In this document: positions 18,095 to 52,610 of the stretch, piece after piece
How positions within the stretch are numbered: the stretch's first letter is position 1
Layout of the letters: each line of letters starts with the position of its first letter
DNA from: Paraburkholderia phytofirmans OLGA172
Lineage (GTDB): Bacteria > Pseudomonadota > Gammaproteobacteria > Burkholderiales > Burkholderiaceae
DNA length: 64,000 bases
NCBI RefSeq assembly: GCF_001634365.1
Contig: NZ_CP014579.1
Location: forward strand, 2,914,001-2,978,000
Direction of reading: 5' to 3'
Notes under the pieces: generated by a model
Database searches by the model: none
The model's input: the letters and a program-made list of their open reading frames with translations, nothing else
Told to the model about the DNA's origin: nothing
Position numbers and translations under genes: made by a program

Positions 18095-18196
18095 GCAAAA
18101 ACTTTTTGAGGACGACCGGACCGGGCCGACGTCGACCCGTCACACTTACCGCGAACGTGATACAAGCACCTCGACACGCCGCCCCAATCGACGTCT

Positions 18197-18298
18197 TTAT
18201 TGCAGTAGAACCCAACGCCCGTTTTTCACGCAGAAGTCGCGCATTCCGGGTAGTACCGATTCGGTGCAGGAAAGACTCCAGTCGCTACGCATTTCCAT
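18197..18298 (-). pseudogene. Porin 5' remnant: promoter and first codons of a porin gene, then unrelated sequence
   Basis: The first five codons (MEMRS) and about 60 bases upstream match the start and promoter region of the intact porin at 24632-25723. After that the frame reads unrelated residues and stops at 18197 after 33 codons in total. It is one end of a duplicated segment that also carries the maleylacetate reductase gene. The rest of the 18044-18531 interval holds the MarR operator and further repeat sequence but no other gene that I can see. Confidence 0.7.
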
Positions 18299-19581
18299 TG
18301 ACGTCTCCTTTGTTTTAATGACCGGCACTTTGTAACCTATGGTCTGCTAATCAATCAGATCAGAGGTTGCGCATTTTTCTGTGTGGATCGACTTCCAGGT
18401 TCCTTGCAAGTCCGGACGGCGGTATCGCCCAGCTCATGCGATACACGCCAGCCGCTAGCGGCCTCAAGGGGAAACCGCCAGTGTCGGATGGATAGTGCGA
18501 TGCCCCCGTGCCCCGCTTACCTCACGGACGGCTACTCTCCAGCCCATGCTGCTTGCAGCAACTTGAGCACGGCTGCCTCGTCAACAGGCGAGGGGTTGTG
18601 ATCGATGTGGTGAAAAGATTCACTGGCGATGGCGGCGATGCTGTCGGCCGGAACGCCCAGCTCGCGCAGCGCGACCGGAGCCCCTAGAGCGCGTACGAGT
18701 CGCTGCAGTGCCACTGCGGGATGCGCGCCCATCACCGACTCCATCGCCGCGCATGCCTCGGGTATCGCCGACGCGTTGTAAGCAAGCACGTGCGGCAGCA
18801 CGACACAGTTGGATTCGCCGTGGGGCACCTCGAAGCGCCCGCCCAGTACGTGACAGATCCGGTGATGCATGCCGATGCCCACCGAATTGACCATCAAGCC
18901 GCCAATCGTCGCGCCATAAGCCGCCTCGGTCCGGGCTTCCAGGTCGGTAGGCTCGTCCGCCAGCTTCTTCAACGCACGGTAGAGCATGTCGATGCCGGTC
19001 AGCGCGAGCTGGCTGGTCAACGGATTGCTCTTCGGAACATACAGCGCCTCGATGCAATGTGCGAGTGCATTCATGCCAGTGGTCGCTGTCTCGCGGATCG
19101 GCAAAGATTGCGCGAGCACCGGATCGACAATGACGGTGTTGGCGAGCGCCCTGGGCTCCCGCCTGGTGCGCTTTTCGCCATCCACCAGCACCCCGAACAG
19201 CGGCGTCATCTCCGACCCCGAGAGCGTGGTCGGCAATGCGATATGGGGCGCGCCAGTTTCCGCCGCAATATATTTGCCGAGGCCGATCGTCGAGCCCCCG
19301 CCAACGGTGACGACGACGTCACATTCACGCGTGCGGAATGTCTCGAGTGCAGCGCGCGCCACCTCGATAGGGCAATGCGGTACGGCACCATCGAACGAGG
19401 CGGCAAGCTGCGACGCGAGGACCTCCGCGACCTCCCGATAACGGCGGGCGCCTCCCTCCGTCGTGATGAGCAGGGCGCGCGATTTTCCCAGCTGCTCCAG
19501 TCGGATCGGCAGATCGGCGAAGCGGCCAGCGCCGAACATGACGGTCGGCGAATGGCAGAAGAAATCAAAAACTGGCTTCAT
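18285..19581. repeat. Direct repeat, copy 1 (porin promoter end plus maleylacetate reductase)
   Basis: This segment matches 25709-27087 in the same order and orientation: the porin start and promoter, a stretch beginning GGTATCGCCCAGCTCATGCG, then the maleylacetate reductase gene. Similarity is nearly complete over about 18721-19260 (versus 26227-26766) and weaker toward both ends, so parts have been homogenised or diverged unevenly. Small insertions and deletions separate the copies between the porin promoter and the reductase gene. Confidence 0.85.
18532..19581 (-). CDS. Maleylacetate reductase (copy 1)
   Basis: Iron-containing-alcohol-dehydrogenase-family enzyme of 349 residues. It reduces maleylacetate to 3-oxoadipate with NAD(P)H, the step that feeds (chloro)aromatic and hydroxyquinol pathways into the TCA cycle. 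Seen here: cofactor loop VGGGSTIGLGKYIAAETGAP, and metal-site histidines in MNALAHCIEALYVP and MHHRICHVLGGRFEVPHGES. ATG 19581 has AGAAGGA eight bases upstream; an upstream in-frame start (19626) is less likely. It is nearly identical to copy 2 in the middle, but more diverged in the first 100 residues and at the C-terminus (ends AWAGE, five residues shorter). It stands downstream of a defective ferredoxin gene in the salicylate hydroxylase cassette, a place where its substrate is not expected. Confidence 0.9.
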   Translation of the reverse strand: MKPVFDFFCHSPTVMFGAGRFADLPIRLEQLGKSRALLITTEGGARRYREVAEVLASQLAASFDGAVPHCPIEVARAALETFRTRECDVVVTVGGGSTIGLGKYIAAETGAPHIALPTTLSGSEMTPLFGVLVDGEKRTRREPRALANTVIVDPVLAQSLPIRETATTGMNALAHCIEALYVPKSNPLTSQLALTGIDMLYRALKKLADEPTDLEARTEAAYGATIGGLMVNSVGIGMHHRICHVLGGRFEVPHGESNCVVLPHVLAYNASAIPEACAAMESVMGAHPAVALQRLVRALGAPVALRELGVPADSIAAIASESFHHIDHNPSPVDEAAVLKLLQAAWAGE

Positions 19582-19618
19582 CGAAACATCCTTCTCTATG
19601 TTCTGGTGGAACGCCTTG

Positions 19619-19744
19619 CTACTCAAAAGCGACGTAGACCCGGTCGTTACCGATCCTGACGGGATAGGTCCGGATGGCCTGCGTCACCGGCACGTCATCG
19701 ACCGCGATGACGTCCTGCCACGAAAAAATCGCATCGGTATTCAT
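19619..19744 (-). pseudogene. nagAb: Rieske ferredoxin gene with internal deletion (Fe-S region lost)
   Basis: The 41-codon frame starts like a Rieske ferredoxin (MNTDAIFSWQDVIAVDDVP) and ends like one (IRTYPVRIGNDRVYVAFE), compared with the intact ferredoxin at 38456-38767 (IQTYPIKIEGGSVYIEI). The two ends are joined in frame, and about 60 residues between them are gone, including both cluster motifs Cys-x-His and Cys-x2-His. The product could not carry electrons. It directly follows the beta-subunit gene, the usual place for the salicylate 5-hydroxylase ferredoxin. Confidence 0.85.
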
Positions 19745-19746
19745 GA

Positions 19747-20223
19747 TCAAACCGGGTAGATGATGGAGTTCGGAATCATTTCGCTGTCGTAGATCGCCAG
19801 ACGCGACGCAAACTTCAGACCGTTAGGTGTTGAAACTATTTCGTCGATGTAACGACCCGCATTGAATACGGTCGACAGCTGGTTCAGCTTCGTGCGGATC
19901 ACGACGTAGTTGGCTTCGCTGTAGATGCGACCGTCCTCGACCTTGTGCACCAGAGGCGCACCCACAATGTGCCGCTGATAGTACGGGTCGTGGAAAAGCG
20001 TCTCCTGGATGCCGTAGACGCGATCCTTGAGCATCCCTTGGCTTTCGAACGACAGCGTCGCCAGTGGAAATCCGCGCTCGAAGTTTTCCCGGGGCTGCAG
20101 ACGGTAGATGCACCGCTCGGTGAAGAACTCCGGCCACAGGTTCCAGTTGCCGGAGTCCACCGCGCTCGCGTAGTCTGCGTACAACTGCGTCAGCGCCATC
20201 CAGTCTTTCAGGTTTTCCATCAT
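19747..20223 (-). CDS. nagH: Salicylate 5-hydroxylase small (beta) subunit, cassette A
   Basis: 158 residues of the aromatic-ring-hydroxylating dioxygenase beta family (SnoaL-like fold), a structural subunit of the alpha3beta3 oxygenase. Family features are [40 protein letters not shown] and [20 protein letters not shown]. The C-terminal part [20 protein letters not shown] is almost the same as in the cassette C subunit. The start overlaps the alpha-subunit stop (ATGA). Confidence 0.9.
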
Positions 20224-21482
20224 TCCGGTGCCTCCATGACTTCGCGCCAGTAGCGGTACATGCCCCGGATGAGCGTATCGCTCACCATATGATCCGTGTC
20301 GGCGACCTCATGGCCGCCGAGCTCGGCCAGTGCCCGATGAAACGGACGGCTTTCGAACGACGACTGGGAGAATTCGATCACCTCGCCATCGTCGGCCGAG
20401 ACGAAGCCGGCCGGGCCGAACAGATTGGCCTGTCTCAGCCGTCGCTGGATCATCTCCTCGGAATCGTCCTCAAACGCGAAGTGCGTCCAGAAGAAGTCGA
20501 AGGAGCCGTGTCCGTTGGGCTGAATCTGCCGCGTCGAGACGCTGTTGACCGACTGCTGGAGGATGACACTCGGAAAGAGGGTCGTCATGACCGCAGTCGG
20601 GCCGCCCCACCAGGGCTCCGTCACGATATCCAGGAAGCGCGGGTCGTTGAGTTGCATGTCCTCCTTAAAGCGCGCGACCTGCGACACCTCCGACGCCTTG
20701 AGCGAGTTGCCCCGTGTGGAGATCATTGCGGCATGCCGCTTGTGCGCGTCCATCTTCAGCGCGGACCGGTTGTCGGCACGCCAGAGTCCGAAGGTCACAA
20801 ACCACGTATGCAGAAGTCCGGGATGATAGGAATCCTTTATGTTCTCCTGCATCAGTTTCCAATTGCCCGGAATGCGCTGCCGGTTGTATCCGAGAACCTT
20901 CAGCTTCCGGCCGTTGAACGTCCTGTCGAAACACTGCAAGATAGTCGGACCCAGGAAATCCTCGAACGACTCGATCCCGTGGTCGAACGAGGCAAAAACC
21001 ACCCCGCCCCGTGTCGCGACCTTCAGCTTCGTCAAGCCGTTGTCCTGCATCTTGAAGTCAGCTGGCATGCCGCCCAGCACCTTACCGTCCTGCTTCACAC
21101 CCCGGCGAAATGGAACGCCCTGCAGATCCCCCTCCAACGTGTAATTCCATTGGTGGTACGGACAGGTGAACCCGTCTTTCCTGTTCCCGTGACGCTCTCT
21201 GCAAAACGCCATGCCGCGATGGGCACACGCATTCTCGATGACGTTGATATTGCCGTCGGCGCCTCGGACCATGATGACGGACCGCTCACCAATTACGGTA
21301 CGGGTGAAGTCGCCGGGGTTCGGAATCTCGGCTTCAAGGCCGACATAGCACCAGTGCTTGCGATAGAAGAATCTCTCCAGCTCTTTCTTGTACGTCGACT
21401 CATCGGTGTATGCCGTGAACGGGATACGACTGGTACCCTCGCCTTCCCACTTGACGGTTTGGGGAAATAGGGTGGATGTCAT
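20220..21482 (-). CDS. nagG: Salicylate 5-hydroxylase large (alpha) subunit, cassette A
   Basis: 420-residue catalytic subunit that would hydroxylate salicylate to gentisate. The Rieske ligands are Cys86-x-His88 (CAHRGMAF) and Cys107-x2-His110 (CPYHQWNY). The iron site is in [17 protein letters not shown] (Asp217, His220, His225). I take ATG 21482 (MTSTLFPQ); the frame extends further upstream without reason. The assignment rests on the NagG-like length and on the neighbouring gentisate-pathway genes. It is closely related to the cassette C alpha subunit. Its own ferredoxin and reductase genes are broken, so it would need electrons from cassette C proteins. Confidence 0.88.
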
Positions 21483-22207
21483 TGTGTTGCCTCCATCGTC
21501 CGCTGGATCACGGTCACGCTCACTTCCGGGAGTCCTTCGATTCGGCCACGCATCACATCTCCAGCCACCACGGGACCGACGCCTTCTGGTGTTCCCGTCA
21601 TGATCAGATCGCCAGGGCGCAGCGGTTCGTAGAGCGACAGGTGCGCGATGCACTCCGCAGTTGACCAGATGAGCTTTGCCACATCGGATGCCTGCCTGGT
21701 CGCTCCGTTGACCGTCAATTCAATCGCCGCCGAGTTCAGATGCCCAGTTTCGCCGACGGGGTGCACAGCCCCAATCGGAGCCGACTCACTGAAACTTTTT
21801 CCAAACTCCCACGGCCGGCCTGCGTCGCGAGCCGCAAGCTGCAGGTCGCGACGCGTCATGTCCAGTCCAACGGCGTAACCGAACACATGATCGAGCGCCT
21901 CGCTCGCCGGAATCTCAAAGCCGCCCTTGCCAATGGCAACCACGAGTTCGACCTCGTACTGGTAGTTCGAGGTCATCGACGGATAGGGAACCGACACGGG
22001 CGCCGAGGCGTCCACGATGGCGCTGACCGGCTTCATAAAGAAGAACGGCGGATCCCGGTCCGGATCTTTGCCCATCTCGCGCGCGTGGGCCGCATAGTTA
22101 CGGCCGACGCAGAAGATGCGATTGACCGGAAAACGCTTCTCGCTCCCATGTACGGTCAGCGAGTAAAGGGGTGAAGGCGAAACTGCGAAATCGATGTGGT
22201 TTGTCAT
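21479..22207 (-). CDS. nagK: Fumarylpyruvate hydrolase (FAH family), cassette A
   Basis: 242 residues of the fumarylacetoacetate-hydrolase fold; in this context it splits fumarylpyruvate into fumarate and pyruvate. Motifs are FCVGRNYAAHAREMG, a metal-site Glu in YEVELVVAIGKGG, and an Asp in YAVGLDMTRRDLQ. The start is ATG 22207 (MTNHIDFAV), with GGGAG nine bases upstream. The ATGA overlap with the alpha-subunit gene downstream indicates one transcript. Two paralogues occur in the window (33607 and 36525). Confidence 0.9.
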   Translation of the reverse strand: MTNHIDFAVSPSPLYSLTVHGSEKRFPVNRIFCVGRNYAAHAREMGKDPDRDPPFFFMKPVSAIVDASAPVSVPYPSMTSNYQYEVELVVAIGKGGFEIPASEALDHVFGYAVGLDMTRRDLQLAARDAGRPWEFGKSFSESAPIGAVHPVGETGHLNSAAIELTVNGATRQASDVAKLIWSTAECIAHLSLYEPLRPGDLIMTGTPEGVGPVVAGDVMRGRIEGLPEVSVTVIQRTMEATQ

Positions 22208-22212
22208 TTCTT

Positions 22213-23259
22213 TTACTCCCGCGACTCGCGCCAAAGACCAAGCGCCTGATGGACCGGACGATCACTGAAACTGAACAGGTGCGTGTCCGTTGTTGCATGG
22301 ATGCGCAGCTCATTCCAGGAAGGAACGATAAAGATGTCATTGGGACCGAAGCCATGCGCGGTCCCGTTTATTTCGGCGTGGCCGGAACCCTCCAGACAGA
22401 CGTAGACGGTACCGTCAGTGCATCGGTAAGGTCGGGTCTCAAAACCGCGAGGGAGCCTCTGCGCATAGGCCCCGATCGTCGGCATCGGTGATCCGCCGGT
22501 GGCAGGGTTCACATAACGCAGCTTGAAACCGAGGTGTTTGTCCGGCTCCCCTTGAGCAATCCCTAGCAGCGATTCCCTGGTACGTTCGTAGGGATAGACG
22601 AACACTGGGCTCGATGAGACACCAACGGGCTGGTGGTCGATAGGCAGCATGTTCGCGCCGTATCGCTTCAGGTTGTCCCCTTCCGGCCTGATGGGCAATT
22701 GAGTGGTCACACTCGCCCGCTCCGAAAAGCTGGCATCAAGGAACTGCACCAGTGGCACGTCGAGCCCATCGAGCCAAACAGCCGGCTGAGTGCCAGGATT
22801 TCCGTGGTCGTGCCATATCCAGGAAGGGGTAAGGATGAAGTCGCCTCGTCGCATCGTGGTGCGCTCCCCATCGACAGCGGTATATGCGCCCTCGCCTTCA
22901 AGTAGAAGCCTCAGCGCCGACTGAGTGTGGCGATGGGCCGCCGCCACCTCGCCGGGCATGATCAGTTGCAGGCCCGCATACAGGGATTGCGTGATGGCCG
23001 AACGCCCGCGCAGCGCGGGGTTCTCGAGGACCAGTACGCGGCGTTCAGCCTCGGCTGTACTGATGAGGCGGCCTGCTTCCATGAGAGGCTCGCGAATCTC
23101 GGCGTAGCCCCACAGGGCCGCCACGGCGGCAGAGGCCGGCGTCGGCGTGACCAAGCGGCCAAGCACTTCCCACAACGGCGTCAGGTTCTGTTGACTGATG
23201 CGGTCGTAGTATTCGCGCCTCGCCCGCGCTTGCTCTGGTTCAACGGTGTGACTTTGCAT
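22213..23259 (-). CDS. nagI: Gentisate 1,2-dioxygenase, cassette A
   Basis: Bicupin Fe(II) extradiol-type dioxygenase of 348 residues that opens gentisate to maleylpyruvate. The N-terminal cupin carries the metal ligands in [19 protein letters not shown] and IWHDHGNPG; the C-terminal cupin is around VYVCLEGSGHAEINGTAHGF. The end DTHLFSFSDRPVHQALGLW is the family's usual tail. GGAGACAACTCCC precedes the ATG. It is first among the intact genes of cassette A; only 16 bases upstream are the last codons of a lost reductase gene. Confidence 0.92.
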   Translation of the reverse strand: MQSHTVEPEQARARREYYDRISQQNLTPLWEVLGRLVTPTPASAAVAALWGYAEIREPLMEAGRLISTAEAERRVLVLENPALRGRSAITQSLYAGLQLIMPGEVAAAHRHTQSALRLLLEGEGAYTAVDGERTTMRRGDFILTPSWIWHDHGNPGTQPAVWLDGLDVPLVQFLDASFSERASVTTQLPIRPEGDNLKRYGANMLPIDHQPVGVSSSPVFVYPYERTRESLLGIAQGEPDKHLGFKLRYVNPATGGSPMPTIGAYAQRLPRGFETRPYRCTDGTVYVCLEGSGHAEINGTAHGFGPNDIFIVPSWNELRIHATTDTHLFSFSDRPVHQALGLWRESRE

Positions 23260-23275
23260 GGGAGTTGTCTCCGAT

Positions 23276-23386
23276 TTACGGGCCGCTCGAGTAGAACGCG
23301 TCGGCGTAGATATGCTCGGGCGGTATCCCGCGCTGTTTAAGAAGTACAGTCATCGTGCGATTGAGCGGACAGACAACTAGCTTCAT
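23276..23386 (-). pseudogene. nagAa: 3' remnant of the salicylate hydroxylase ferredoxin reductase gene
   Basis: The 36-codon frame ends LLKQRGIPPEHIYADAFYSS plus GP and a stop. It matches the last 24 or so residues of the intact reductase at 40549-41535 (LLRQKGVDPDHIYADAFYAS). Everything upstream in that gene (Fe-S, flavin and NAD domains) is missing, and the preceding 11 codons are unrelated. It shows that cassette A once began with the reductase gene, as cassette C does. Confidence 0.85.
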
Positions 23387-23444
23387 GAGATTTGTTCAAC
23401 TCGGAAATCTATCGTGGATGAATTCTATGAACTGCTCTAACATT

Positions 23445-23479
23445 GGTAAATGCGATATCGTGAATTGCCAACATTTACC
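23445..23479. promoter_or_regulatory. Inverted repeat upstream of the cassette A LysR gene
   Basis: GGTAAATG and CATTTACC (8 bp, perfect) are 19 bases apart, just before the LysR start and in the divergent region toward the gentisate dioxygenase gene. Position and dyad symmetry fit a LysR-type recognition region. The arms differ from those of the cassette C intergenic region. Confidence 0.5.
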
Positions 23480-23493
23480 TTGTGAATGAAATC

Positions 23494-24408
23494 GTGGAAC
23501 TGAATGACATCGACCTGAACCTGCTGGTCGTATTTAGCGAACTGCTCATCGAGCGTCGTGTAGCCAGAGTGGCTGACAAGCTTGGTTTAACGCAACCGTC
23601 CGTGAGCAATGCGCTCAGCCGCTTACGCAAGCTGCTTCATGACGATCTTTTCATTCGCACACCAAAGGGGATGGAACCAACCCCCTACGCAAGTCAGCTT
23701 GCAGAGCCAATCAGCTTCGCGTTAAGCACGATTCGAAGCTCCTTGAACCAGCAACCGGAGTTTTCCCCCGACACGAGCACGCGAAGATTCACCATCGGTA
23801 TGGCCGATGTGGGGGAAATCTATTTTTTGCCCAAGCTAATGGACAGGCTGGCGCACGTCGCCCCCCATGTTTCTGTGAGCACGCTGCGCAACACGTCGGT
23901 GAATCTACGGGATGCGATGGAAGCGGGACAGATCGATCTTGCAATGGGTTTGCTGCCACAACTAAAGGCCGGATTCTTTCAGCGCAGCCTCTTCCATCAG
24001 GCTTATGTATGCATGTTTCGCCAAGGTCACCCGCTTCAAGGGAGGAAAATTTCCCTCAAACAGTTCACCGAAGCCGACCACGTGGTTGTCGTTTCTCCGG
24101 GAACAGGACATGCGCAAGTGGACGACATGATCGAGCGAAAAGGCATTCGCAGAAACGTCCGGCTTACCGTGCCACATTTCGTCGCCGTCGGGCACATCCT
24201 TTCCAATACGGATATGATCGCCACGGTTCCGGAGCGTTACGCGATGGAGTGTCTGGCGCCATTCAAGCTCGCGTACGTCAAGCATCCGGTCGAATTGCCA
24301 GGGATCGACATCAACATCTTCTGGCATGCGAAATTGCACAAGGAACCGGGCAACCAATGGCTGCGCAATCTGATTGCCGATACGTTCTCGGATGCCGCAC
24401 GAGGGTGA
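23494..24408 (+). CDS. LysR-family regulator of cassette A (NahR/NagR-like)
   Basis: 304 residues with an N-terminal winged helix (ERRVARVADKLGLTQPSVSN, ALSRLRKLLHDDLFIRTPKG) and a substrate-binding domain starting near residue 92 (RRFTIGMADVGEIYFLPKLM). I prefer GTG 23494 because the product then aligns with the cassette C regulator from its first residue (MELNDIDLNLLVVF / MELQDIDLNLLVVF); GTG 23482 is possible. It is closely related to the LysR at 41668. NahR/NagR-type proteins activate in response to salicylate. Divergent orientation relative to the degradation genes fits. Confidence 0.9.
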   Translation: MELNDIDLNLLVVFSELLIERRVARVADKLGLTQPSVSNALSRLRKLLHDDLFIRTPKGMEPTPYASQLAEPISFALSTIRSSLNQQPEFSPDTSTRRFTIGMADVGEIYFLPKLMDRLAHVAPHVSVSTLRNTSVNLRDAMEAGQIDLAMGLLPQLKAGFFQRSLFHQAYVCMFRQGHPLQGRKISLKQFTEADHVVVVSPGTGHAQVDDMIERKGIRRNVRLTVPHFVAVGHILSNTDMIATVPERYAMECLAPFKLAYVKHPVELPGIDINIFWHAKLHKEPGNQWLRNLIADTFSDAARG

Positions 24409-24631
24409 GAGCCATGTCCGTCACGAACCCGGCGTCCTGCATTTTCCAACGAGGCTGCGCCATGAAGACGAGCGCCAGGCACGGAAACGGGGCGGCCGCG
24501 AACCGACTGTGCAACATGCCGCCCCTGTGGCGTTGCGATCCTGCAGGTGACATTGCGTCTGGTTGTTTCCCAGTTGTGGAGACTACATGCCCGCGCATCG
24601 GGTCGAGGTGCAACGCAGTCGTGCCCCCGAT

Positions 24632-25723
24632 TCAGAATAGGTGGCGCATACCGAGCATCACGCCAAGCTGCTCCGCACCTGCCTCGACCGTACCGCCGGC
24701 GGATACCGGCGTGCTGCCGTGACGGCCGTTGATCATGTAACCCACGGATGAATAGACGGACGTACTCCTGCTCAGATAGTAGCTGGCACGCGCAGCCAGC
24801 CCGGTCGAACTCGTCACGCCCGACTGGATGTATTTGTCGACCTGCGCGTCGAGGGCTAGCGACGCTATCGGCGTATAAGTGAGTCCGAAAAAGTACAGGT
24901 TATAGAGTGTGCTTGCCGCGCCGGCCGACAGGTTACGGTGAATCCAGCCACCGCCTGCCTTCACGCTCGGGAGCTTGAAATAGCCATCGACGACAGTGTG
25001 AGTGTCTGTGTAGGCGCTACTGGTCAGCGGTGCCGACGCCCCCGCGCCGCCACGCATCCGGTCATACGATGCCGCCGCCCCGAAGTGGGACGAATCGTAG
25101 GCAATCATGGCGGTGTATTGCTTGCAGGCGAGGAAATTGCCGGCCACCTGGCCCGGACAATTCGTCGCGGAGGGGCCGGCGGGCCCGGCAGCGTCACGCC
25201 CGAAACTGTACGTGGCGCCGACGGTCACACCCGCAAACTTTTCCATGTAGCCAACGGCGTTGTCGCTGCGTGCATAGGCCAGATAGCTGTCGAAGACGTA
25301 CAACGAATGAATCGACGGTCCGATAACGTCGGCGTTCAGGAGTGTGTAGGTCGTCATGTTGATCTGCCGACCAAGTGTCAACGAGCCGTAGGCGGTCTGC
25401 AGCCCCACGTTCGCCTGCCGCCCGAACTCCCGGCCACCGAAATTGAAGCCGCCGGTACCCGGCGCGAAGCCGCTCTCCAGCCTGAAAATCGCCTTGTTGC
25501 CGCCCCCGAGATCCTCCACGCCCGTCAATCCCCACTCCGAAGGCATTTCGCCAGTCAATGTGGGCACACCGGCAAAACTGCCACCACCGGCTGCATGGTT
25601 GTAGTATTCGACTCCTGTATCGATGATGCCGTATAGCGTGACACTGCTCTGGCTGTGGGCGAGGCATGACGCTTGCATGAGCGAAAAGAACGCGACACTC
25701 CTCAACAGACTACGCATTTCCAT
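24632..25723 (-). CDS. Gram-negative trimeric porin (OmpC-like)
   Basis: 363-residue outer-membrane porin. It has a signal peptide with a SLMQASCLAHSQ end, the opening strand SSVTLYGIIDTGVEYYNHAA, and the internal strands GLTGVEDLGGGNKAIFRLES and ASYYLSRSTSVYSSVGYMIN. The C-terminus is MLGMRHLF with the terminal Phe. It lies downstream of the dioxygenase/hydrolase/reductase operon in the same direction and probably serves uptake of the aromatic substrate. Its promoter and first codons are duplicated at 18285-18355. Confidence 0.92.
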   Translation of the reverse strand: MEMRSLLRSVAFFSLMQASCLAHSQSSVTLYGIIDTGVEYYNHAAGGGSFAGVPTLTGEMPSEWGLTGVEDLGGGNKAIFRLESGFAPGTGGFNFGGREFGRQANVGLQTAYGSLTLGRQINMTTYTLLNADVIGPSIHSLYVFDSYLAYARSDNAVGYMEKFAGVTVGATYSFGRDAAGPAGPSATNCPGQVAGNFLACKQYTAMIAYDSSHFGAAASYDRMRGGAGASAPLTSSAYTDTHTVVDGYFKLPSVKAGGGWIHRNLSAGAASTLYNLYFFGLTYTPIASLALDAQVDKYIQSGVTSSTGLAARASYYLSRSTSVYSSVGYMINGRHGSTPVSAGGTVEAGAEQLGVMLGMRHLF

Positions 25724-27087
25724 TGACGTCTCCTTTTTTTAACGACCGGTGTTTTGTAATTTTTGGCATACTAATCAAACATATAAACGGCTCTGTATCT
25801 TTGTGCGTGGCCCTGTGTTTGTGACCGCAACACGCCGACTGTCTACCGTGTTGCTGCGCTCGCCCGTATTCCCGCTCGACACGCCGGGCGGGCAATCACC
25901 GAGCAAAGCGGGTGAGCCGGACGGCCGGTATCGCCCAGCTCATGCGATACACGCCAGCCGCTAGCGGCCTCAAGGGGAAACCGCCAGTGTCGGATGGATA
26001 GTGCGATGAACTCCCGCGCCGCTTACCTCGAGGACGGCTCCTCTCCAGTCCATGCGGCTTGCAGCAAGTTGAGCACGGCTGCCTCGTCAACAGGCAAGGG
26101 GTTGTGGTCGATGTGGTGGTGAGATTCCGCGGCGATGGCGACAATGCTGTCGGCCGGAACGCCCAGCTCGCCTAGCGAGGCGGGAGCCCCCAAACTGCGC
26201 GCGAGCCGGTACAGTGCCACCGCAGGATGCGCGCCCATCACCGACTCCATCGCCGCGCATGCCTCGGGTATCGCCGACGCGTTGTAAGCAAGCACGTGCG
26301 GCAGCACGACACAGTTGGATTCGCCGTGGGGCACCTCGAAGCGCCCGCCCAGTACGTGACAGATCCGGTGATGCATGCCGATGCCCACCGAGTTGACCAT
26401 CAAGCCGCCAATCGTCGCGCCATAAGCCGCCTCGGTCCGGGCTTCCAGGTCGGTAGGCTCGTCCGCCAGCTTCTTCAACGCACGGTAGAGCATGTCGATG
26501 CCGGTCAGCGCGAGCTGGTTGGTCAACGGATTGCTCTTCGGAACATACAGCGCCTCGATGCAATGTGCGAGTGCATTCATGCCAGTGGTCGCTGTCTCGC
26601 GGATCGGCAAAGATTGCGCGAGCACCGGATCGACAATGACGGTGTTGGCGAGCGCCCTGGGCTCCCGCCTGGTGCGCTTTTCGCCATCCACCAGCACCCC
26701 GAACAGCGGCGTCATCTCCGACCCCGAGAGCGTGGTCGGCAATGCGATATGGGGGGCGCCGGTTTCCGCCGCAATATATTTGCCGAGGCCGACAGTCGAC
26801 CCTCCTCCAACGGTGACAATGGCATCACATTCCCGCCGACGGAACGCGTCTAGTGCAGCATTCGCCACCTCGAGTGGACAGTGCGGCAACGCGCCATCGA
26901 ACGAGGCGCGAAGCCGGGACGCGAGCACCTCGGCGACTTCCCGGTAGCGGCGGGCGCCGCCCTCCGTTGTGACGAACAGTGCGCGCGACTTTCCCATCTG
27001 ATCGAGACGGCCCGCGAGGTCCGCGACGCGGCCTGCCCCGAACAGGACTGTCGGCGAGTGGCACTCAAACTGGAACGCCGGAATCAT
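25709..27087. repeat. Direct repeat, copy 2 (porin promoter end plus maleylacetate reductase)
   Basis: This is the counterpart of 18285-19581. Here the porin is intact and the reductase gene is translationally coupled to a dienelactone hydrolase gene, so this looks like the original setting. The two copies are about 7.4 kb apart in direct orientation and enclose cassette A and its LysR gene. Recombination between them would delete or amplify that block. Confidence 0.85.
26023..27087 (-). CDS. Maleylacetate reductase (copy 2)
   Basis: 354-residue iron-ADH-family enzyme, same reaction and motifs as copy 1 (VGGGSTVGLGKYIAAETGAP, metal-site His in ALAHCIEALYVP and HHRICHVLGGRF). ATG 27087 overlaps the stop of the dienelactone hydrolase gene, so the two are coupled; dienelactone hydrolases make maleylacetate, which fits. 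A longer in-frame start at 27474 would run through the hydrolase gene and is not credible. The C-terminus is AWTGEEPSSR, five residues longer than copy 1. Confidence 0.93.
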   Translation of the reverse strand: MIPAFQFECHSPTVLFGAGRVADLAGRLDQMGKSRALFVTTEGGARRYREVAEVLASRLRASFDGALPHCPLEVANAALDAFRRRECDAIVTVGGGSTVGLGKYIAAETGAPHIALPTTLSGSEMTPLFGVLVDGEKRTRREPRALANTVIVDPVLAQSLPIRETATTGMNALAHCIEALYVPKSNPLTNQLALTGIDMLYRALKKLADEPTDLEARTEAAYGATIGGLMVNSVGIGMHHRICHVLGGRFEVPHGESNCVVLPHVLAYNASAIPEACAAMESVMGAHPAVALYRLARSLGAPASLGELGVPADSIVAIAAESHHHIDHNPLPVDEAAVLNLLQAAWTGEEPSSR

Positions 27088-27806
27088 CGAAGTCGCTCCG
27101 TCAACAGTTCGAGCATGCGGTGATCCGCTGCGAGGAAAGCCTCCCGGTTGAACGCCTCCTCGCGCAACGAATTGAAGAATCCATGTTGCGCGCCCTTGTA
27201 GGTGTATACGGTGGCGTTCGGCATGCCGCTGACGACACTCTCGACGGCACGGACATGCTCGGGAAGTATGTGCGTATCGTCTTCGCCTACGTGGTATTGC
27301 AGCGGAGATTCGATAGTGCGCAACTCCTTCAGATGCTCGTGAACCCGCACTCCGTAGAAAGAAACCGCGGCGTCGCAATGAAAGCGGGCGGCATACTTCA
27401 GCGCGAGCAGGCCGCCAATGCAAAACCCGACAACGGCCAGCTTGCCATTGGCGCCGGGTAGGTGACGCGCCCACTCCGCTACGGCATTGCAGTGATTGAG
27501 TGCTGTCTCCGGGTTAAATGCCTGAAGCAGTGCGAAGCCACGTTGGCGGTCGGCCTCGCTATAGCCGAGATCGACCCGGCGCTCGAGATGGCCGAAAACG
27601 TCTGCGCACACCACCCTGAATCCCTTCTCGCTCAGTTTCGTCGCGATGTGGCGCATCGCCTGGTTCACGCCGAAGATTTCCTGAAGCAGCAGAACGGTGC
27701 CGCGCGGTGCATCGTCCTCGCCGTGGGCGGGACCGACGCAGAACGCTTCGATGTCTTCTTGCTGAGAAACTGTCTGCCAGCCGGACGGGAATTGCGCTGC
27801 GGTCAT
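27084..27806 (-). CDS. Dienelactone hydrolase (copy 1)
   Basis: Alpha/beta hydrolase of 240 residues with the full dienelactone hydrolase site: Glu in LLQEIFGVNQA, nucleophile Cys in VGFCIGGLLAL, Asp in HVGEDDTHILP and His in GAQHGFFNS. It opens lactones such as 4-carboxymethylenebutenolide to maleylacetate. It overlaps the dioxygenase gene upstream (ATGA at 27803) and the maleylacetate reductase gene downstream (ATGA at 27084), which makes a tight three-gene unit for ring cleavage, lactone opening and reduction. Confidence 0.92.
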   Translation of the reverse strand: MTAAQFPSGWQTVSQQEDIEAFCVGPAHGEDDAPRGTVLLLQEIFGVNQAMRHIATKLSEKGFRVVCADVFGHLERRVDLGYSEADRQRGFALLQAFNPETALNHCNAVAEWARHLPGANGKLAVVGFCIGGLLALKYAARFHCDAAVSFYGVRVHEHLKELRTIESPLQYHVGEDDTHILPEHVRAVESVVSGMPNATVYTYKGAQHGFFNSLREEAFNREAFLAADHRMLELLTERLR

Positions 27807-28906
27807 GCTACCTCCAGTTCAAAAATGGTTCCGTCGTCGTTACGCGCCTGTTTGCGCATTAAGCCGAGTTTCTTGAGAGCGGGCTCGTCAGTCACCGAAT
27901 AAAGCGCTGCTTCGCCGCCGGTCGATTCATGCTGATACCACGACCACGGGGGCGCGCAGAATACATCGTTGGGTTTCCACTCGAAAGTTTTCCCGTTGAT
28001 TTCGGTTTTTCCGGTGCCTTCCAGCACGACGAATACTGAGGAAGAAGTTCGCCTTTGGGGCAGTGTCCGTTCGCCTGCGCGCAGCAACGTGCTTCTATAA
28101 GACATTGTCTGCATAACAGGGCCGCCGCTAACCGGGTTTGTGTATTCGACCGTGATCGCGTCGTATGGACTGCCAGGCAGACTGGACATGGCATCGAGCG
28201 CTGCCCGCGTGTCCTTCCATCGATAGACGAACATCGGGGAGTGATCGACGCGGCCCCTGCGGTGGTCAACGAAGGTCGGCGTGAGTCCCCCGCGCGAATA
28301 CAGATGCGTGGAATGACCCGACGGTGCGGCGATTGACTGGACCGTCCTGCGCTGCTCATCTTCGACGTAGTCGAACTCGAACATCGTTGCATTGAGCGAC
28401 TCGACTAGCGGAACATCGAGAACGTCAACCCAGATGACCGGTTCCGTCCCTTCGTTTCCGTGATCGTGCCAGCAGCCGTTGGGCGTCAGCACGAGATCGC
28501 CGCGCGACATCAGGATCTTCTCGCCATTCACCACGGTAAACCCGCCCTTGCCTTCCAGCACGAAGCGGCTCGCATTCGGCGTATGGCGATGGACCGGCGC
28601 CTGTTCCCCCGGGTTGTACAGCGAATAGGCCGCAAATATCGTCTGCGTGATGTAGGGCTTGCCAGACAGCCCGGGATTGGCGAACACCAGAGCCCGCCGC
28701 TCGCATTCCTCGATTGGCACGGTCCTGGCGGCCACCGCGAGCCGCGGCTGGATATCGGACCACTGCCAGTGATACGGCACAGCCCTCGGCCGCGGTTCCT
28801 CAATTTCGATCTCCATACGCTGTTCCCAGAACTCCACCAGATTGAGCGCGGATGCATCGCTCGAGAGTTGGGCGCGCACGCCAGCGTGATCAAGCTCCAT
28901 GGTCAT
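27803..28906 (-). CDS. Bicupin ring-cleavage dioxygenase (gentisate/salicylate 1,2-dioxygenase family)
   Basis: 367 residues. The N-terminal cupin has PVHRHTPNASRFVLEGKG and the later ligand His in CWHDHGNEGTEPV. The C-terminal cupin has SSVFVVLEGTGKTEINGKTF and WYQHES. It is clearly related to the gentisate dioxygenases here but only distantly. The family includes salicylate, 5-halosalicylate, 5-nitrosalicylate and 1-hydroxy-2-naphthoate 1,2-dioxygenases. Because it is coupled to a dienelactone hydrolase and maleylacetate reductase rather than to maleylpyruvate genes, a substituted substrate whose cleavage product lactonises is plausible. It has a strong AAAGGAGAAGGAG ribosome-binding site. 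It is divergent from the IclR gene, with a palindrome between. Confidence 0.82.
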   Translation of the reverse strand: MTMELDHAGVRAQLSSDASALNLVEFWEQRMEIEIEEPRPRAVPYHWQWSDIQPRLAVAARTVPIEECERRALVFANPGLSGKPYITQTIFAAYSLYNPGEQAPVHRHTPNASRFVLEGKGGFTVVNGEKILMSRGDLVLTPNGCWHDHGNEGTEPVIWVDVLDVPLVESLNATMFEFDYVEDEQRRTVQSIAAPSGHSTHLYSRGGLTPTFVDHRRGRVDHSPMFVYRWKDTRAALDAMSSLPGSPYDAITVEYTNPVSGGPVMQTMSYRSTLLRAGERTLPQRRTSSSVFVVLEGTGKTEINGKTFEWKPNDVFCAPPWSWYQHESTGGEAALYSVTDEPALKKLGLMRKQARNDDGTIFELEVA

Positions 28907-30044: not shown

Positions 30045-30623
30045 TCACGGTTGATGGGGGCGATTTCCCTCCACCGCGTGGAAGACGTGGCCCATCGGTT
30101 CTTCCCAGATCAGGTTGCGTTCCATCGCACGTGCGGGCATGTCCTGGATCACGTATTGGATCGCGGGCTCAGTGCCGGTGTTGATGTGCTCGTGGCTGGC
30201 CATCGGTGGGCAGGCGAACGTGTCGCCGCGCTTCCAATCAAAGCGCTTGCCGTCCAGGATCGAGTAACCTTCGCCCTGCATGATGTGATACAGCGCGTAC
30301 GAGTTGTGACGGTGCGCGACGATGTGCTCACCCGGGTTGATCGCCTGAATGCCCAGAAAGATTGACGGGAACACGCCACCCGCTTCGCCGGTATCGCCAT
30401 GAACCAGCGCAATGAAGCGCCGATCCGCGTTGCGCAGCGGGTCTTTCATCACCACATCCAGCCGCTCCACCACATCCTGCCAGCGCCAGATGGCGGGACG
30501 CAGGTTCTTCTTGATGAGGAACGGATAGTACTCGTCGTCCGTCATCATCTGAGCCCACTCGGTCCGGTCGACGACTTCCGTCACCGGCGACGTCTTGAGA
30601 TTAACTGCGTTGTCTTCGCTCAT
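30045..30623 (-). CDS. Single-cupin protein related to the N-terminal half of gentisate dioxygenase
   Basis: 192 residues. The helical N-terminus (NLRPAIWRWQDVVERLDVVM) resembles gentisate dioxygenases, followed by one cupin with INPGEHIVAHRHNSYALYHI and FACPPMASHEHINTG. Metal-binding His residues are present. The second cupin of gentisate dioxygenase is absent, but the frame is clean, has an AAGGAGG ribosome-binding site, and ends naturally. It looks like a distinct short family member, not a broken gene. It could be a dioxygenase, an isomerase or a tautomerase-like cupin. It follows the second dienelactone hydrolase gene by 33 bases. Confidence 0.78.
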   Translation of the reverse strand: MSEDNAVNLKTSPVTEVVDRTEWAQMMTDDEYYPFLIKKNLRPAIWRWQDVVERLDVVMKDPLRNADRRFIALVHGDTGEAGGVFPSIFLGIQAINPGEHIVAHRHNSYALYHIMQGEGYSILDGKRFDWKRGDTFACPPMASHEHINTGTEPAIQYVIQDMPARAMERNLIWEEPMGHVFHAVEGNRPHQP

Positions 30624-30656
30624 GTTTGCCTCCTTAATTAAAATGAGAGTTATTGA

Positions 30657-31400
30657 CTAGTGCGCGCCGACGCGTCCGCGCAGGTGCCAATTCAGGAAAG
30701 TTCGCGTGCGCTGCCAGGCGGCGCTCGACGCAGCCGGCCGAAAAACCGCTGGTCGGAACCACTCGTCGAACGCGTGCGGCGCGCCGCCGTAGATGAAAAG
30801 CTCGTACGGCTTCTGGGCCGTGCGCAGCCGGCTGGTAAATCGGTCAATCTCATCCCGGCCGACCAGGCGGTCCCAGTCGCCGTAGTGGCACAGCAACGGC
30901 GCCTTCAGGGACTCGGCGACATCAACCGGTGCAATGGGCTTGCGCTCGGTACGGGATGCATAGTCAAACTGACCGTAGTAGTCGACCGCGCAACCGATCG
31001 CATGTTGGGCACTTGCCAACGTGGCATAAGTTCCGCCGATGCAAAAACCGAGCAGACCCACATTCGAAAGCGGGAAGCCTGCGGTACGCGCCCACCCCAA
31101 AATTTCTTCGAGATCCGCGAGCACACGCCGATCGTCCAGTGCGGCAACAGCCTCACCAATCAGCTGCGGCGTAGAAATGTCCGGGACCGCGCCTTCCCGT
31201 CCGAAGTAGTCGAGCACCGCGACGGTGTAGCCGTCCGCGCACAGATTTCGCGCCCGAGTGACGACGTAGTCGTTGACGCCGGCGATTGCCGCCAGCATCA
31301 CAACGAGCGCCGGTACAACCTGCGTGTCCTGGACTGGCCGCAGAAGGCGGCACGATGCGCCACCGGGAAACGAAAGATGCTCAATATCGATACCGTTCAT
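30657..31400 (-). CDS. Dienelactone hydrolase family protein (copy 2, divergent)
   Basis: 247 residues with the hydrolase core: nucleophile Cys in LGFCIGGTYATL, Asp in HYGDWDRLVG and His in GGAPHAFDEW. The segment that carries the activating Glu in dienelactone hydrolases (EIFGVN in copy 1) reads AIAGVN here, so that Glu is replaced by Ala. The overall fold is likely kept, but activity on dienelactone may be altered; another ester, lactone or C-C substrate is possible. It pairs with the single-cupin gene downstream. Confidence 0.85.
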   Translation of the reverse strand: MNGIDIEHLSFPGGASCRLLRPVQDTQVVPALVVMLAAIAGVNDYVVTRARNLCADGYTVAVLDYFGREGAVPDISTPQLIGEAVAALDDRRVLADLEEILGWARTAGFPLSNVGLLGFCIGGTYATLASAQHAIGCAVDYYGQFDYASRTERKPIAPVDVAESLKAPLLCHYGDWDRLVGRDEIDRFTSRLRTAQKPYELFIYGGAPHAFDEWFRPAVFRPAASSAAWQRTRTFLNWHLRGRVGAH

Positions 31401-38455: not shown

Positions 38456-38767
38456 CTAGATTTCGATGTAGACCGAACCGCCCTCGATCTTGATCGGATA
38501 GGTCTGGATATCCACGGTCAACGGTTCGCACATGGCCTTACCGCTGCGTACGTCGAACTTGCCCTGATGCAGCGGGCACTCGATCTCGTGACCATCCAGG
38601 AATCCGTCGCACAGACGGGCGTGTCCGTGCGTGCAGACGTTGTCCGTCGCGTAGACCGCGCCATCGACGCTGTAGATAGCGACCTCGCGCCCACCGGCGA
38701 TTACAGCCGTCACATCGTCGGCCGGTATGGCGGCCAGCTCGATGACCTTCGTCCACTGCTTTTCCAT
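38456..38767 (-). CDS. nagAb: Rieske ferredoxin of salicylate 5-hydroxylase
   Basis: 103 residues with cluster ligands Cys45-x-His47 (VCTHGHARL) and Cys64-x2-His67 (ECPLHQGKF). It carries electrons from the reductase to the oxygenase. ATG 38767 is favoured over TTG 38773 because GAGG lies seven bases before it. It is the only intact Rieske ferredoxin gene in the window, so cassette A oxygenase would depend on it. Confidence 0.92.
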   Translation of the reverse strand: MEKQWTKVIELAAIPADDVTAVIAGGREVAIYSVDGAVYATDNVCTHGHARLCDGFLDGHEIECPLHQGKFDVRSGKAMCEPLTVDIQTYPIKIEGGSVYIEI

Positions 38768-38775
38768 CTTCAACC

Positions 38776-40548: not shown

Positions 40549-41535
40549 CTAGACGCCGCTCGCGTAAAAAGCATCCGCGTAGATATGATCCGGATCGACA
40601 CCCTTCTGGCGCAACAGGATCGAAGCGGCGTCCACCATCACCGGTGCACCCGCCAGATAGGCGCGCCAGCCGGTCATGTCTTTCCAGTCAGCGTTCACCG
40701 CTTCGGTCACGACGCCTGTGCGATACAGGCTGTCTTTTGCGCCGGCCGCGACCACGACGTGCACGGTCAGGTTCGGCAACGCCTCGCGAATCTCATTGAG
40801 CCAACGAACGCCATAGACGTCCTCGGATGAACGAACGCCGAAATAGACGTGTACGGGGTTGCTCATGCGGGCATCGGCCATGCCGCGCAGGATCGAGAGA
40901 ATAGGCGCTAGCCCCGTTCCTCCCGCGACACATACGATCGGGCCAGGATATTTTTTCCGCAGGTACGCTGTTCCGAGCGGACCGCTCAAACGCACTGCCT
41001 GTCCGACCGTGAGCTCTGCCGCCACATATGAGGTGACGCGGCCGCCCGGTACCAGACGAATGTGAAATTCGACTTCGTCCGAATTCGCTGTGACCGCCAT
41101 CGAGTACGGCCTACTATGCTGCGGCGTGAATTGAAGAGTGGCGTACTGTCCCGGCGAGAATTCGAATGACTTCGACAGTGCGAGCCGCACCCGCTTGATG
41201 TCGTGCGTCAGGTCGTCGATCGCCACGACAGTCGCCTTGATGATCTTCGCTGGGTGCGCGACGATCTCGTCGACCTCCGGTATTTCGATCACACAGTCTT
41301 CCACGACCGTCGTCTGGCATGCCAACACCGATTGCCCGTTGGCGGCAGGCGAATTGGAATCAGTCGCGCCAGTGACAAGAACGTTTCCCGAAACGACACG
41401 GCAGCGGCACGTACCGCATCGGCCGGCCATGCAACTGTACGAAACCGGAATTTGATTGTTGCGCAGGGCTTCCAGCAAATTTTCGCCCGAACGTACATCG
41501 AGCGTGCGCTGAAGCGGCAGGATTGAAACTTGCAT
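40549..41535 (-). CDS. nagAa: Ferredoxin reductase of salicylate 5-hydroxylase
   Basis: 328 residues, the usual NagAa length, from ATG 41535 (MQVSILPLQRTLDV); the longer frame to 41637 runs into the promoter. Order: N-terminal plant-type 2Fe-2S domain with SYSCMAGRCGTCRCRV and a fourth Cys in VLACQTTVV, then a flavin domain (SRPYSMAVTA) and an NAD domain (CVAGGTGLAPILSILRGM). The C-terminus DPDHIYADAFYASGV has a matching remnant in cassette A. First gene of the operon, 132 bases from the divergent LysR gene. Confidence 0.93.
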   Translation of the reverse strand: MQVSILPLQRTLDVRSGENLLEALRNNQIPVSYSCMAGRCGTCRCRVVSGNVLVTGATDSNSPAANGQSVLACQTTVVEDCVIEIPEVDEIVAHPAKIIKATVVAIDDLTHDIKRVRLALSKSFEFSPGQYATLQFTPQHSRPYSMAVTANSDEVEFHIRLVPGGRVTSYVAAELTVGQAVRLSGPLGTAYLRKKYPGPIVCVAGGTGLAPILSILRGMADARMSNPVHVYFGVRSSEDVYGVRWLNEIREALPNLTVHVVVAAGAKDSLYRTGVVTEAVNADWKDMTGWRAYLAGAPVMVDAASILLRQKGVDPDHIYADAFYASGV

Positions 41536-41611
41536 GGAACCAGTGTCTCCGAGCTGGACAACGTATGGCTTTATGATGCTTGGAAAGGCAAAATTGATAA
41601 ATAGAAGTTTC

Positions 41612-41637
41612 TTGATATGACATATCACCAATATCAA
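41612..41637. promoter_or_regulatory. ATATCA repeats between the salicylate operon and its LysR gene
   Basis: TGATAT-GAC-ATATCA (41613-41627) is a perfect palindrome. A further ATATCAA (41631-41637) forms an inverted repeat with TTGATAT (41612-41618). They lie in the 132-base divergent region, 77-102 bases upstream of the reductase start and about 30 bases before the LysR start. This is the expected place for LysR binding. Confidence 0.6.
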
Positions 41638-48400: not shown

Positions 48401-48429
48401 ATTATAGAGACTCATTGCGCGTCGCACAA
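48401..48429 (-). promoter_or_regulatory. Sigma-70 promoter of tRNA-Val
   Basis: Minus strand: TTGTGC (48424-48429) and a perfect TATAAT (48401-48406) are 17 bases apart, 12 bases before the tRNA 5' end. Confidence 0.75.
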
Positions 48430-48511
48430 CCCCACACGGCAAGTATGTTCTCGAGCGGGGGTCCATCGGTTCGTCGCGCAGTGAGTCGCGCGGTTCGGCG
48501 GTGAACTTGCT

Positions 48512-48899
48512 TCAGTTCGTCGACACCCAGTCGCCGAGATCCCATGGTTCGTGCGTGTGCTCCGTCATCACGAGCTTGACCGTGCCGGTGTCGAGCACCG
48601 CGCGCCCCATGAACGCACGCTGGCGCGTATAGGTCGGGCCGCTGATCACGTATTTGCCATTGGTTAGCGCACGCGCTACGCCGGTCACGGCAAGCGGCCG
48701 CTGCGGGGTCTCCGCGCGGCTTGCGACCTTGTTGCAGACCGTCACCGTGCTGCCGACGCCCTGCTGCCATCAGCGCCGCGACCGCCTGCGGATCGCACAA
48801 CGGCCCGCTGACGATCCCTTCGAGCTTCTGCTTGAGCGCCTCCTCCAGCAGATCGATCGCGACGCTAATACACGGCGCCTCGATATCGGCTAGCGAGAA
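48512..48899 (-). pseudogene. C-terminal remnant of an MlrC-like M81 family metallopeptidase gene
   Basis: The minus strand reads GFSLADIEAPCISVAIDLLE and IVSGPLCDPQAVAALMAAG in one frame, then after a frameshift near 48750 TVCNKVASRAETPQRPLAV to a stop at 48512. The second part resembles the MlrC C-terminal domain (SGPTYTRQRAFMGRAVL and VMTEHTHEPWDLGDW), and then the expected end is missing. The N-terminal peptidase domain is absent. It is a fragment between tRNA-Val and the rRNA operon terminator. Confidence 0.6.
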
Positions 48900-48939
48900 G
48901 CCGGAATTTACCGCCGCTTTTTACGGCCGTAAACGCAAA

Positions 48940-48964
48940 AACCCCACCTTTGTGGGGTGGGGTT
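48940..48964 (-). terminator. Intrinsic terminator of the rRNA operon
   Basis: On the minus strand AACCCCACC pairs with GGTGGGGTT around a 7-base loop and is followed by a T-run. It lies 19 bases after the 5S gene. Confidence 0.85.
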
Positions 48965-48982
48965 TCTGGACATGCTGGGGAG

Positions 48983-49096
48983 CCTGACGATTACCTACTT
49001 TCACACGGGAATCCGCACTATCATCGGCGTGGAGTCGTTTCACGGTCCTGTTCGGGATGGGAAGGGGTGGGACCGACTCGCTATGGTCATCAGGCA
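48983..49096 (-). rRNA. rrf: 5S ribosomal RNA
   Basis: The minus strand begins TGCCTGATGACCATAGCGAG and ends near GTAGGTAATCGTCAGGC, with CCATCCCGAACAGG in the middle, as in other Burkholderiales. The two ends pair (TGCCTGA with TCAGGC). Ends are placed to within a few bases. Confidence 0.95.
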
Positions 49097-49108
49097 TGAC
49101 TTGTTGTC

Positions 49109-49127
49109 GTGTTGACTTTGTCAACAC
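49109..49127. other. Perfect 8-bp hairpin between 23S and 5S genes
   Basis: GTGTTGAC-TTT-GTCAACAC. The rest of the 49097-49314 spacer holds no gene. The stem may be a processing signal in the rRNA precursor. Confidence 0.4.
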
Positions 49128-49314
49128 AACCAATCTGGAAGAAGTAGTTTCTGGTGATGCTCACCAGAGGAGCTTTCAGCAAGCTCGGGCTGTGTTGTTC
49201 GAGGCACAACATCGATCTCAACCTGTGCATGTGGTCTCAAGACCCTGCGCATGGCGCAGGGTGGGCATCCATAAGTGCTGAAGCACTAACGGCTGCCGAC
49301 ACACACCTGTTATA

Positions 49315-52194
<2,880 letters not shown>

Positions 52195-52398
52195 CTATAA
52201 CGGGTGTGTCTCATGTCGCATCCACTGGGAATGCAACGCTCGCCACAATCGCTACAGGTTGAGTATTCGTGTTGCGCCGTATTCCAAAGCGATCTTTCGA
52301 TCACCTTTTCATACATTGATACAATCACAACCCTGATTCACCTACTCGATCACCCATCTCTAAGTGATCTTTCGTGAATCTCTTTACTACTTCTTCCT

Positions 52399-52413
52399 GA
52401 TTGTTAAAGAACG
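52399..52413 (-). promoter_or_regulatory. boxA antitermination element in the 16S-23S spacer
   Basis: Minus strand GTTCTTTAACAATCA matches the NusB/NusE-binding boxA consensus and lies about 200 bases before the 23S 5' end, downstream of tRNA-Ala. Confidence 0.7.
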
Positions 52414-52534
52414 ACAGCCGATATCGCGGTTGCTATAACCACGTATCACTCTGACTGGCTCAATCGCCAATGCTTGTTTCACTACACCGCCAACGTCTTT
52501 CAACGTGCGCCGCAGATAAACCAGCATTGAAGAT

Positions 52535-52610
52535 TGGTGGAGGATGACGGGATCGAACCGACGACCCCCTGCTTGCAAAGCAGGTGCTCTCCCAGCTGAG
52601 CTAATCCCCC
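52535..52610 (-). tRNA. tRNA-Ala (TGC)
   Basis: 76 bases with encoded CCA. Acceptor GGGGGAT, anticodon loop TTTGCAA with TGC, T-arm GGTTCGATCCC. In the rRNA operon spacer, 3' of tRNA-Ile. Confidence 0.97.

What the first reader, a model, noticed from the sequence alone, without database searches (positions are those of the whole stretch)
18285..27087. Direct repeats carrying maleylacetate reductase flank a salicylate cassette
The block porin-promoter + first porin codons + maleylacetate reductase occurs at 18285-19581 and 25709-27087 in the same orientation. The middle of the gene is almost identical, while the ends differ, which points to duplication followed by local gene conversion. Copy 2 sits in a logical operon after a dienelactone hydrolase; copy 1 sits behind a deleted ferredoxin. 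The repeats enclose about 7.4 kb with cassette A and could loop it out or amplify it.
Basis: seen in the sequence. Interest (0 to 1): 0.75.

Follow-up and report, generated by a model that had tools for sequence, protein, structure and literature searches.

The report
Old twin genes partly overwritten alike
A soil bacterium carries two old copies of a gene for breaking down aromatic acids whose middle parts were later made nearly identical by copying from one to the other, while some relatives show the scars of having had both copies and lost one.

Summary
Two maleylacetate reductase (MAR) genes are direct repeats (18532-19581, 26023-27087; period 7,506 bp). A 568-bp core is 99.3% identical; the 5' 295 bp differ at 71 sites, the 3' 184 bp at 29. 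A further 83-bp spacer tract is identical. Gene conversion is strongly supported: 70 polymorphic sites in a row agree (0 of 5,000 shuffles) and segment trees disagree. "Recent duplication" is not supported: eight mapped relatives hold one intact MAR each in the stretch read, and three (G123, P. aromaticivorans, Trinickia mobilis) carry remains of a second; P. solitsugae has a fitting deletion. So the pair is old and the window kept both. In the family the MAR 5' segment exists in two deeply diverged forms whose distribution needs at least three changes on a core tree. In cassette A, reductase and ferredoxin are in-frame stubs of 36 and 41 codons while the oxygenase is intact; it probably draws electrons from cassette B. 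The cassette A reductase is decayed in 3 of 4 sampled genomes with cassette B and in 0 of 5 without. The repeats could recombine, but no loop-out was seen. A known kind of event, well documented here.

The parts
18532..19581 (-). MAR1, maleylacetate reductase (b position, behind the ferredoxin stub)
26023..27087 (-). MAR2, maleylacetate reductase (a position, overlaps DLH by ATGA)
18719..19286 (-). conversion tract in MAR1, 564 of 568 identical to MAR2
26225..26792 (-). conversion tract in MAR2
18420..18502 (-). second identical tract (83 of 83), downstream of MAR1
25926..26008 (-). second identical tract, between MAR2 and porin
18285..18345 (-). porin leader and first porin codons, remnant of a lost porin after MAR1
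24632..25723 (-). porin
19619..19744 (-). 41-codon in-frame ferredoxin stub (67 codons deleted, both Rieske motifs gone)
23276..23386 (-). 36-codon in-frame reductase stub (879 bp deleted)
19747..20223 (-). cassette A oxygenase small subunit (nagH-like)
20220..21485 (-). cassette A oxygenase large subunit (nagG-like), full length
21479..22210 (-). fumarylacetoacetate hydrolase family protein
22213..23259 (-). gentisate 1,2-dioxygenase
   Evidence: above the NCBIfam cut-off
23482..24408 (+). LysR regulator of cassette A
27084..27806 (-). dienelactone hydrolase-like protein (name from context and from relatives' annotation)
27803..28906 (-). cupin ring-cleaving dioxygenase (salicylate/gentisate type)
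38456..38773 (-). cassette B Rieske ferredoxin, full length
40549..41637 (-). cassette B reductase, full length

Best explanation
The two MAR genes are an old pair: MARa, DLH-linked (MAR2), and MARb, ferredoxin-linked (MAR1), on either side of a salicylate 5-hydroxylase/gentisate cassette. Later, homologous recombination without exchange of flanks copied about 570 bp of one gene, and 83 bp of the downstream spacer, over the other, leaving position-specific ends (the mosaic is shown; the enzymology is inferred). The direction is not settled for the core. Earlier conversions probably moved the MARa 5' segment into MARb in other lineages (inferred). In relatives one MAR was lost by deletion, in three with remains. 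In the window, cassette A also lost its reductase and ferredoxin by in-frame deletions (shown); its oxygenase probably uses those of cassette B (inferred).
For: Mosaic identity. Third-position identity of MAR1 and MAR2: 55.8% in the 5' part, 97.4% in the core, 79.7% in the 3' part; core pairs among the eight other genes average 73.4%, at most 86.3%. Run test 0 of 5,000. Trees: core MAR1+MAR2 100; 5' MAR2+Trinickia 100, MAR1+P. solitsugae 99. Remains of the lost partner: G123, start of DLH joined to a MAR 3' end at CCGTCCG; P. aromaticivorans, DLH plus about 42 nt of a MARa start; Trinickia, a broken MAR piece after its ferredoxin, closest to the G123 gene. P. solitsugae: DLH cut at about codon 41 and joined to the LysR end. 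Stubs. Reductase and ferredoxin survey.
Against: MAR genes are mosaic across the whole family, so the flanks could have been replaced after a younger duplication. The MAR2 3' end is close to no MAR of another species (best 82.5%, P. solitsugae; the tree joins it with Dyella at 90), so its history is unexplained. The P. solitsugae deletion does not show MARa itself. Four of the eight relatives gave no sign of a second MAR in what was read. P. aromaticivorans keeps both full electron-transfer sets, so cassette B does not force loss.
Confidence: 0.85

Rival explanations
1. A recent tandem duplication made two identical MAR-porin blocks; later recombination with foreign DNA replaced the ends of each.
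For: The core is nearly identical, and segment replacement is common in the family.
Against: The ends match genes at the same position in relatives (MIPxFQFEC behind DLH, MKxVFDFFC behind the ferredoxin), and three relatives carry remains of a second MAR. Several replacements would have to restore old ends.
Confidence: 0.1
2. The middle is identical only because the core of the enzyme is constrained by selection.
For: The core is the most conserved part in the ten MARs aligned.
Against: Third codon positions are 97.4% identical in the core, while pairs of the other genes average 73.4% and reach at most 86.3%.
Confidence: 0.01
3. Single-crossover integration of a circle carrying one MAR into DNA carrying the other made the repeats.
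For: Relatives have gene orders that look like circular permutations of one unit.
Against: The porin and cassette genes show no clear split into two sources along the expected line, and a crossover alone does not make a 568-bp tract of near identity.
Confidence: 0.15

Closest known systems
Gene conversion between catIJF and pcaIJF of Acinetobacter (recalled; no paper on it seen here)
   Same: Paralogous catabolic genes in one genome kept alike by conversion.
   Different: There (recalled) gene blocks are alike; here a core and a spacer tract only, between two MARs on either side of a cassette.
cat gene amplification in Acinetobacter baylyi (PMC9997567; abstract and section list seen)
   Same: Duplication and amplification of a catabolic cluster.
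   Different: No amplification is seen in the window; only the geometry would allow it.
nag operon of Ralstonia sp. U2 (gene order in a passage of PMC8006333; sharing of NagAa/NagAb by two oxygenases is recalled)
   Same: A salicylate 5-hydroxylase served by a reductase and ferredoxin shared with another oxygenase.
   Different: Here sharing would follow from decay of cassette A's own genes and use of those of a paralogous cassette.
5-nitrosalicylate pathway of Bradyrhizobium (passages of PMC10306065)
   Same: A cupin ring-cleaving dioxygenase followed by a lactone hydrolase.
   Different: Here a MAR follows the DLH, and substrates are untested.
Maleylacetate reductases of known structure (3w5s, 3hl0)
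   Same: Same protein family, nearly full-length match.
   Different: MAR1 and MAR2 are not characterised; substrate unknown.

Membership tests
Gene conversion between paralogs | Bounded tract of near identity inside diverged paralogs of one genome | tested here: met
Gene conversion between paralogs | Segment trees disagree; in the tract the paralogs are sisters | tested here: met
   core 100; 5' MAR2 with Trinickia 100
Gene conversion between paralogs | Donor and recipient of the core identified | tested here: inconclusive
   core of MAR1 nearest Trinickia MARa (93.2%) and G123 MARb (93.0%)
Maleylacetate reductase family | Full-length similarity to known maleylacetate reductases | tested here: met
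   (MAR2): 3w5s E 9.7e-72, 3hl0 E 1.2e-71; the best row, 3jzd, is named only iron-containing alcohol dehydrogenase. NCBIfam gave no row above its cut-off
Maleylacetate reductase family | Reduces maleylacetate with NAD(P)H | not testable with these tools
   needs an assay
Three-component salicylate 5-hydroxylase (cassette A) | Oxygenase large and small subunits | tested here: met
   the best NCBIfam rows are AndAc and AndAd, both below cut-off, so the substrate name rests on context
Three-component salicylate 5-hydroxylase (cassette A) | Own working reductase and ferredoxin | tested here: not met
   stubs of 36 and 41 codons
Recent tandem duplication | Copies alike from end to end, no trace of a second copy in relatives | tested here: not met

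The most novel reading that the evidence does not exclude
MARa acts as a standing template: repeatedly its 5' segment, which lies in the cofactor-binding domain (domain placement recalled), was copied into the ferredoxin-linked MARb, after which MARa was lost, so that a paralog pair works as a short-lived device for swapping enzyme segments. At the same time cassette A becomes an oxygenase module living on the electron chain of a sister cassette.
Probability: 0.35. Interest if true: 0.6.

Novelty: new member of a known kind. Interest (0 to 1): 0.42.

Why it matters
It is a clear natural case in which the age of a duplication and the age of paralog similarity are quite different, with remains of the lost copies in relatives to prove it. 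It also suggests how multi-gene aromatic pathways are trimmed: electron-transfer genes of one cassette decay when a sister cassette can supply them, which knockouts could test. A search of the held open-licence papers for gene conversion together with maleylacetate reductase found 0; papers outside that library were not searched.

Tried and rejected
Selective constraint as the cause of the identical core: rejected by silent sites. Campbell-type integration: not supported by the porin and gene comparisons, not excluded. A structured RNA as the reason for the 83-bp tract: the fold of the MAR2-porin spacer is no better than shuffles (z -0.45, 29 of 100 as good). The 83-bp tract as a dispersed repeat: two strong copies in the genome, besides two chance-level matches of 19-21 bases. 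A further MAR in the own genome as donor: by DNA only one 49-base match besides the two copies (40 of 57 candidates scored). The idea that each genome holds exactly one working reductase set was dropped: one search showed stops in the P. aromaticivorans cassette B reductase, but the annotated gene starts behind the N-terminal part of the query, so I take that genome to have both sets. Ten paper searches gave little on conversion in such genes. The map of L005 was wrong because the file held many loci; it was redone. One search was read out of frame and is not used; the reductase stub comes.

Full report
What is there. The window lies on contig 2 of an 8.57-Mb genome in 5 contigs. Named relatives of the same genus are Paraburkholderia: the unnamed handles G087, G132, G085 and G062 have contigs of the same length as the records of P. 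solitsugae, P. susongensis, P. silviterrae and P. oxyphila, G176 as that of Trinickia mobilis, and G008 as the P. aromaticivorans plasmid NZ_CP051517. On the minus strand run a cupin dioxygenase (27803-28906), a dienelactone hydrolase-like gene (DLH), MAR2 and a porin; then, behind a LysR gene on the plus strand, a reductase stub, gentisate dioxygenase, a fumarylacetoacetate hydrolase family gene, an oxygenase pair (nagG/nagH-like), a ferredoxin stub, MAR1 and a MarR gene.

The repeat. MAR1 and MAR2 share 313 of 354 aligned positions. The DNA alignment is a mosaic: in the 5' part 71 of 295 sites differ, in the core 4 of 568, in the 3' part 29 of 184. Two of the four core differences fall near its 5' edge. 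In the spacer between MAR and porin 83 of 83 sites are identical; Trinickia, the one relative of seven that aligns over all 83, has 73. A run test on 441 polymorphic sites of ten MAR genes gave a longest shared run of 70 (shuffled mean 19.7, maximum 50, 0 of 5,000 as long); on 258 third-position sites 75 (0 of 5,000). Of the 45 pairs, three others also had unusual runs, of 18-20 sites, at 300 shuffles: P. solitsugae-G123 and G123-Trinickia (1 of 300 each), P. susongensis-Trinickia (0 of 300). Trees of the three segments disagree: in the core MAR1 and MAR2 are sisters (100), with most other core branches weak; in the 5' part MAR2 goes with Trinickia (100) and MAR1 with P. solitsugae (99), the place of P. 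aromaticivorans being unsure (50); in the 3' part MAR2 goes with Dyella (90).

The pair is old. Of 144 genomes of the genus, 76 have some match to the MAR query, mostly short; 7, the window's included, have a long one, and only the window's has two (that search scored two candidates a genome). A sample of 398 genomes of the family gave 3, the window's included, at E 1e-60 or better. Eight relatives were mapped: P. solitsugae, P. aromaticivorans, G123, P. susongensis, P. silviterrae, P. oxyphila, Trinickia mobilis and Dyella flava; each has one full-length MAR in the stretch held. Three carry remains of another. In G123 the first codons of DLH run into the 3' end of a MAR at the shared letters CCGTCCG, followed by spacer and porin. 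In P. aromaticivorans DLH is followed by about 42 bases of a MAR start of the DLH-linked kind. In Trinickia, whose full MAR is the DLH-linked one, a broken MAR piece follows the ferredoxin and is closest to the G123 gene. In P. solitsugae DLH is cut at about codon 41 and joined to the LysR end, which fits loss of MARa but does not show it. The other four gave no such sign in what was read. Gene orders of relatives look like circular permutations of one unit, which fits tandem duplication followed by different deletions. The porin leader and first porin codons behind MAR1 show that a porin once followed MAR1 as one follows MAR2.

Segment swaps in the family. Residues about 25-98 come in two forms. 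MAR1, MAR2, P. solitsugae, P. aromaticivorans and Trinickia have form I; G123, P. silviterrae, P. oxyphila and Dyella form II; P. susongensis is II with a form I-like stretch at the end. MAR1 and G123 share 38.9% of third positions in the 5' part, but 84.2% in the core and 84.7% in the 3' part. On a core tree of 30 proteins (those with core identity of 70% or more and few gaps, out of 56 rows aligned; 4 duplicates had been taken out) the label needs 5 changes, at least 3 forced by well supported branches, and 0% of 200 bootstrap trees had one change. The form of the two outermost rows, P0024 and P0025, was assigned on low identity (61 against 44%, 49 against 41%). Of 27 proteins with a core of 85% or more, the start FQFEC went with form I in 5 of 5, the start FDFFC with form I in 5 and form II in 12; 5 were not typed by that rule, two of them near FQFEC and of form I. 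P0010 (form I) fell just under the cut-off. This fits copying of the MARa segment into MARb, but the genome context of the database proteins is unknown and transfer between species is not excluded.

Electron-transfer genes. In the six relatives read (P. solitsugae, P. aromaticivorans, G123, P. susongensis, Trinickia, Dyella) cassette A has a reductase of 328-348 residues and a full ferredoxin with both Rieske motifs. The window has an 879-bp deletion in the first and a 201-bp deletion in the second, both in frame, leaving stubs of 36 and 41 codons without these motifs. Cassette B in the window has both genes full length. Among nine genomes looked at, cassette B reductase and ferredoxin orthologs (71% or more) are in four: the window's, P. 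aromaticivorans, P. silviterrae and P. oxyphila (in Dyella only the reductase was sought). Cassette A's reductase is decayed in three of these four and full length in P. aromaticivorans; it is full length in all five without cassette B: P. solitsugae, G123, P. susongensis, Trinickia and Dyella. The three decayed reductases carry different lesions as far as read. P. silviterrae and P. oxyphila group together in every MAR tree, so this is no independent test. That the cassette A oxygenase uses cassette B's chain is inference; three other matches to Rieske ferredoxins lie in the genome at 35-39% identity.

Function. MAR2 matches solved maleylacetate reductases over nearly its full length. A cupin dioxygenase with a lactone hydrolase resembles the 5-nitrosalicylate pathway (passages of PMC10306065), so substituted salicylates are a fair guess for the DLH operon. 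What MAR reduces here is not known.

Loop-out. The 568-bp core, with a longest identical stretch of 235 bases, is ample for homologous recombination by established knowledge. It would remove the porin, LysR, gentisate dioxygenase, hydrolase and oxygenase genes. None of the eight mapped relatives shows that product, and read depth cannot be checked here.

Noticed in passing
30045-31400: A 192-residue protein that matches parts of gentisate and 5-aminosalicylate dioxygenase models, next to a second DLH-like gene; 97% identical in P. solitsugae and G123. It recalls the single-cupin 5-nitrosalicylate dioxygenase plus lactone hydrolase pair.
   Followed up: no
L005 14997-15915: In Trinickia mobilis the cassette A gentisate dioxygenase and hydrolase match only in part while reductase and ferredoxin are full length, the reverse of the window.
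   Followed up: partly
L079 3804-3838: A second copy of the porin leader sequence (35 bases, 94%) on the P. aromaticivorans plasmid, on the other strand, with no porin in the gene table there, which is incomplete.
   Followed up: no
18174-18284: Between the porin leader remnant of copy 1 and the MarR upstream region lies a stretch that matched nothing in the five relatives' loci compared; its origin is unknown.
   Followed up: partly
L134 7496-8593: P. aromaticivorans has a further annotated maleylacetate reductase (about 39% identical to MAR1) beside its cassette B.
   Followed up: partly
48402-54943: A stretch of about 6 kb with few open frames, perhaps ribosomal RNA genes.
   Followed up: no
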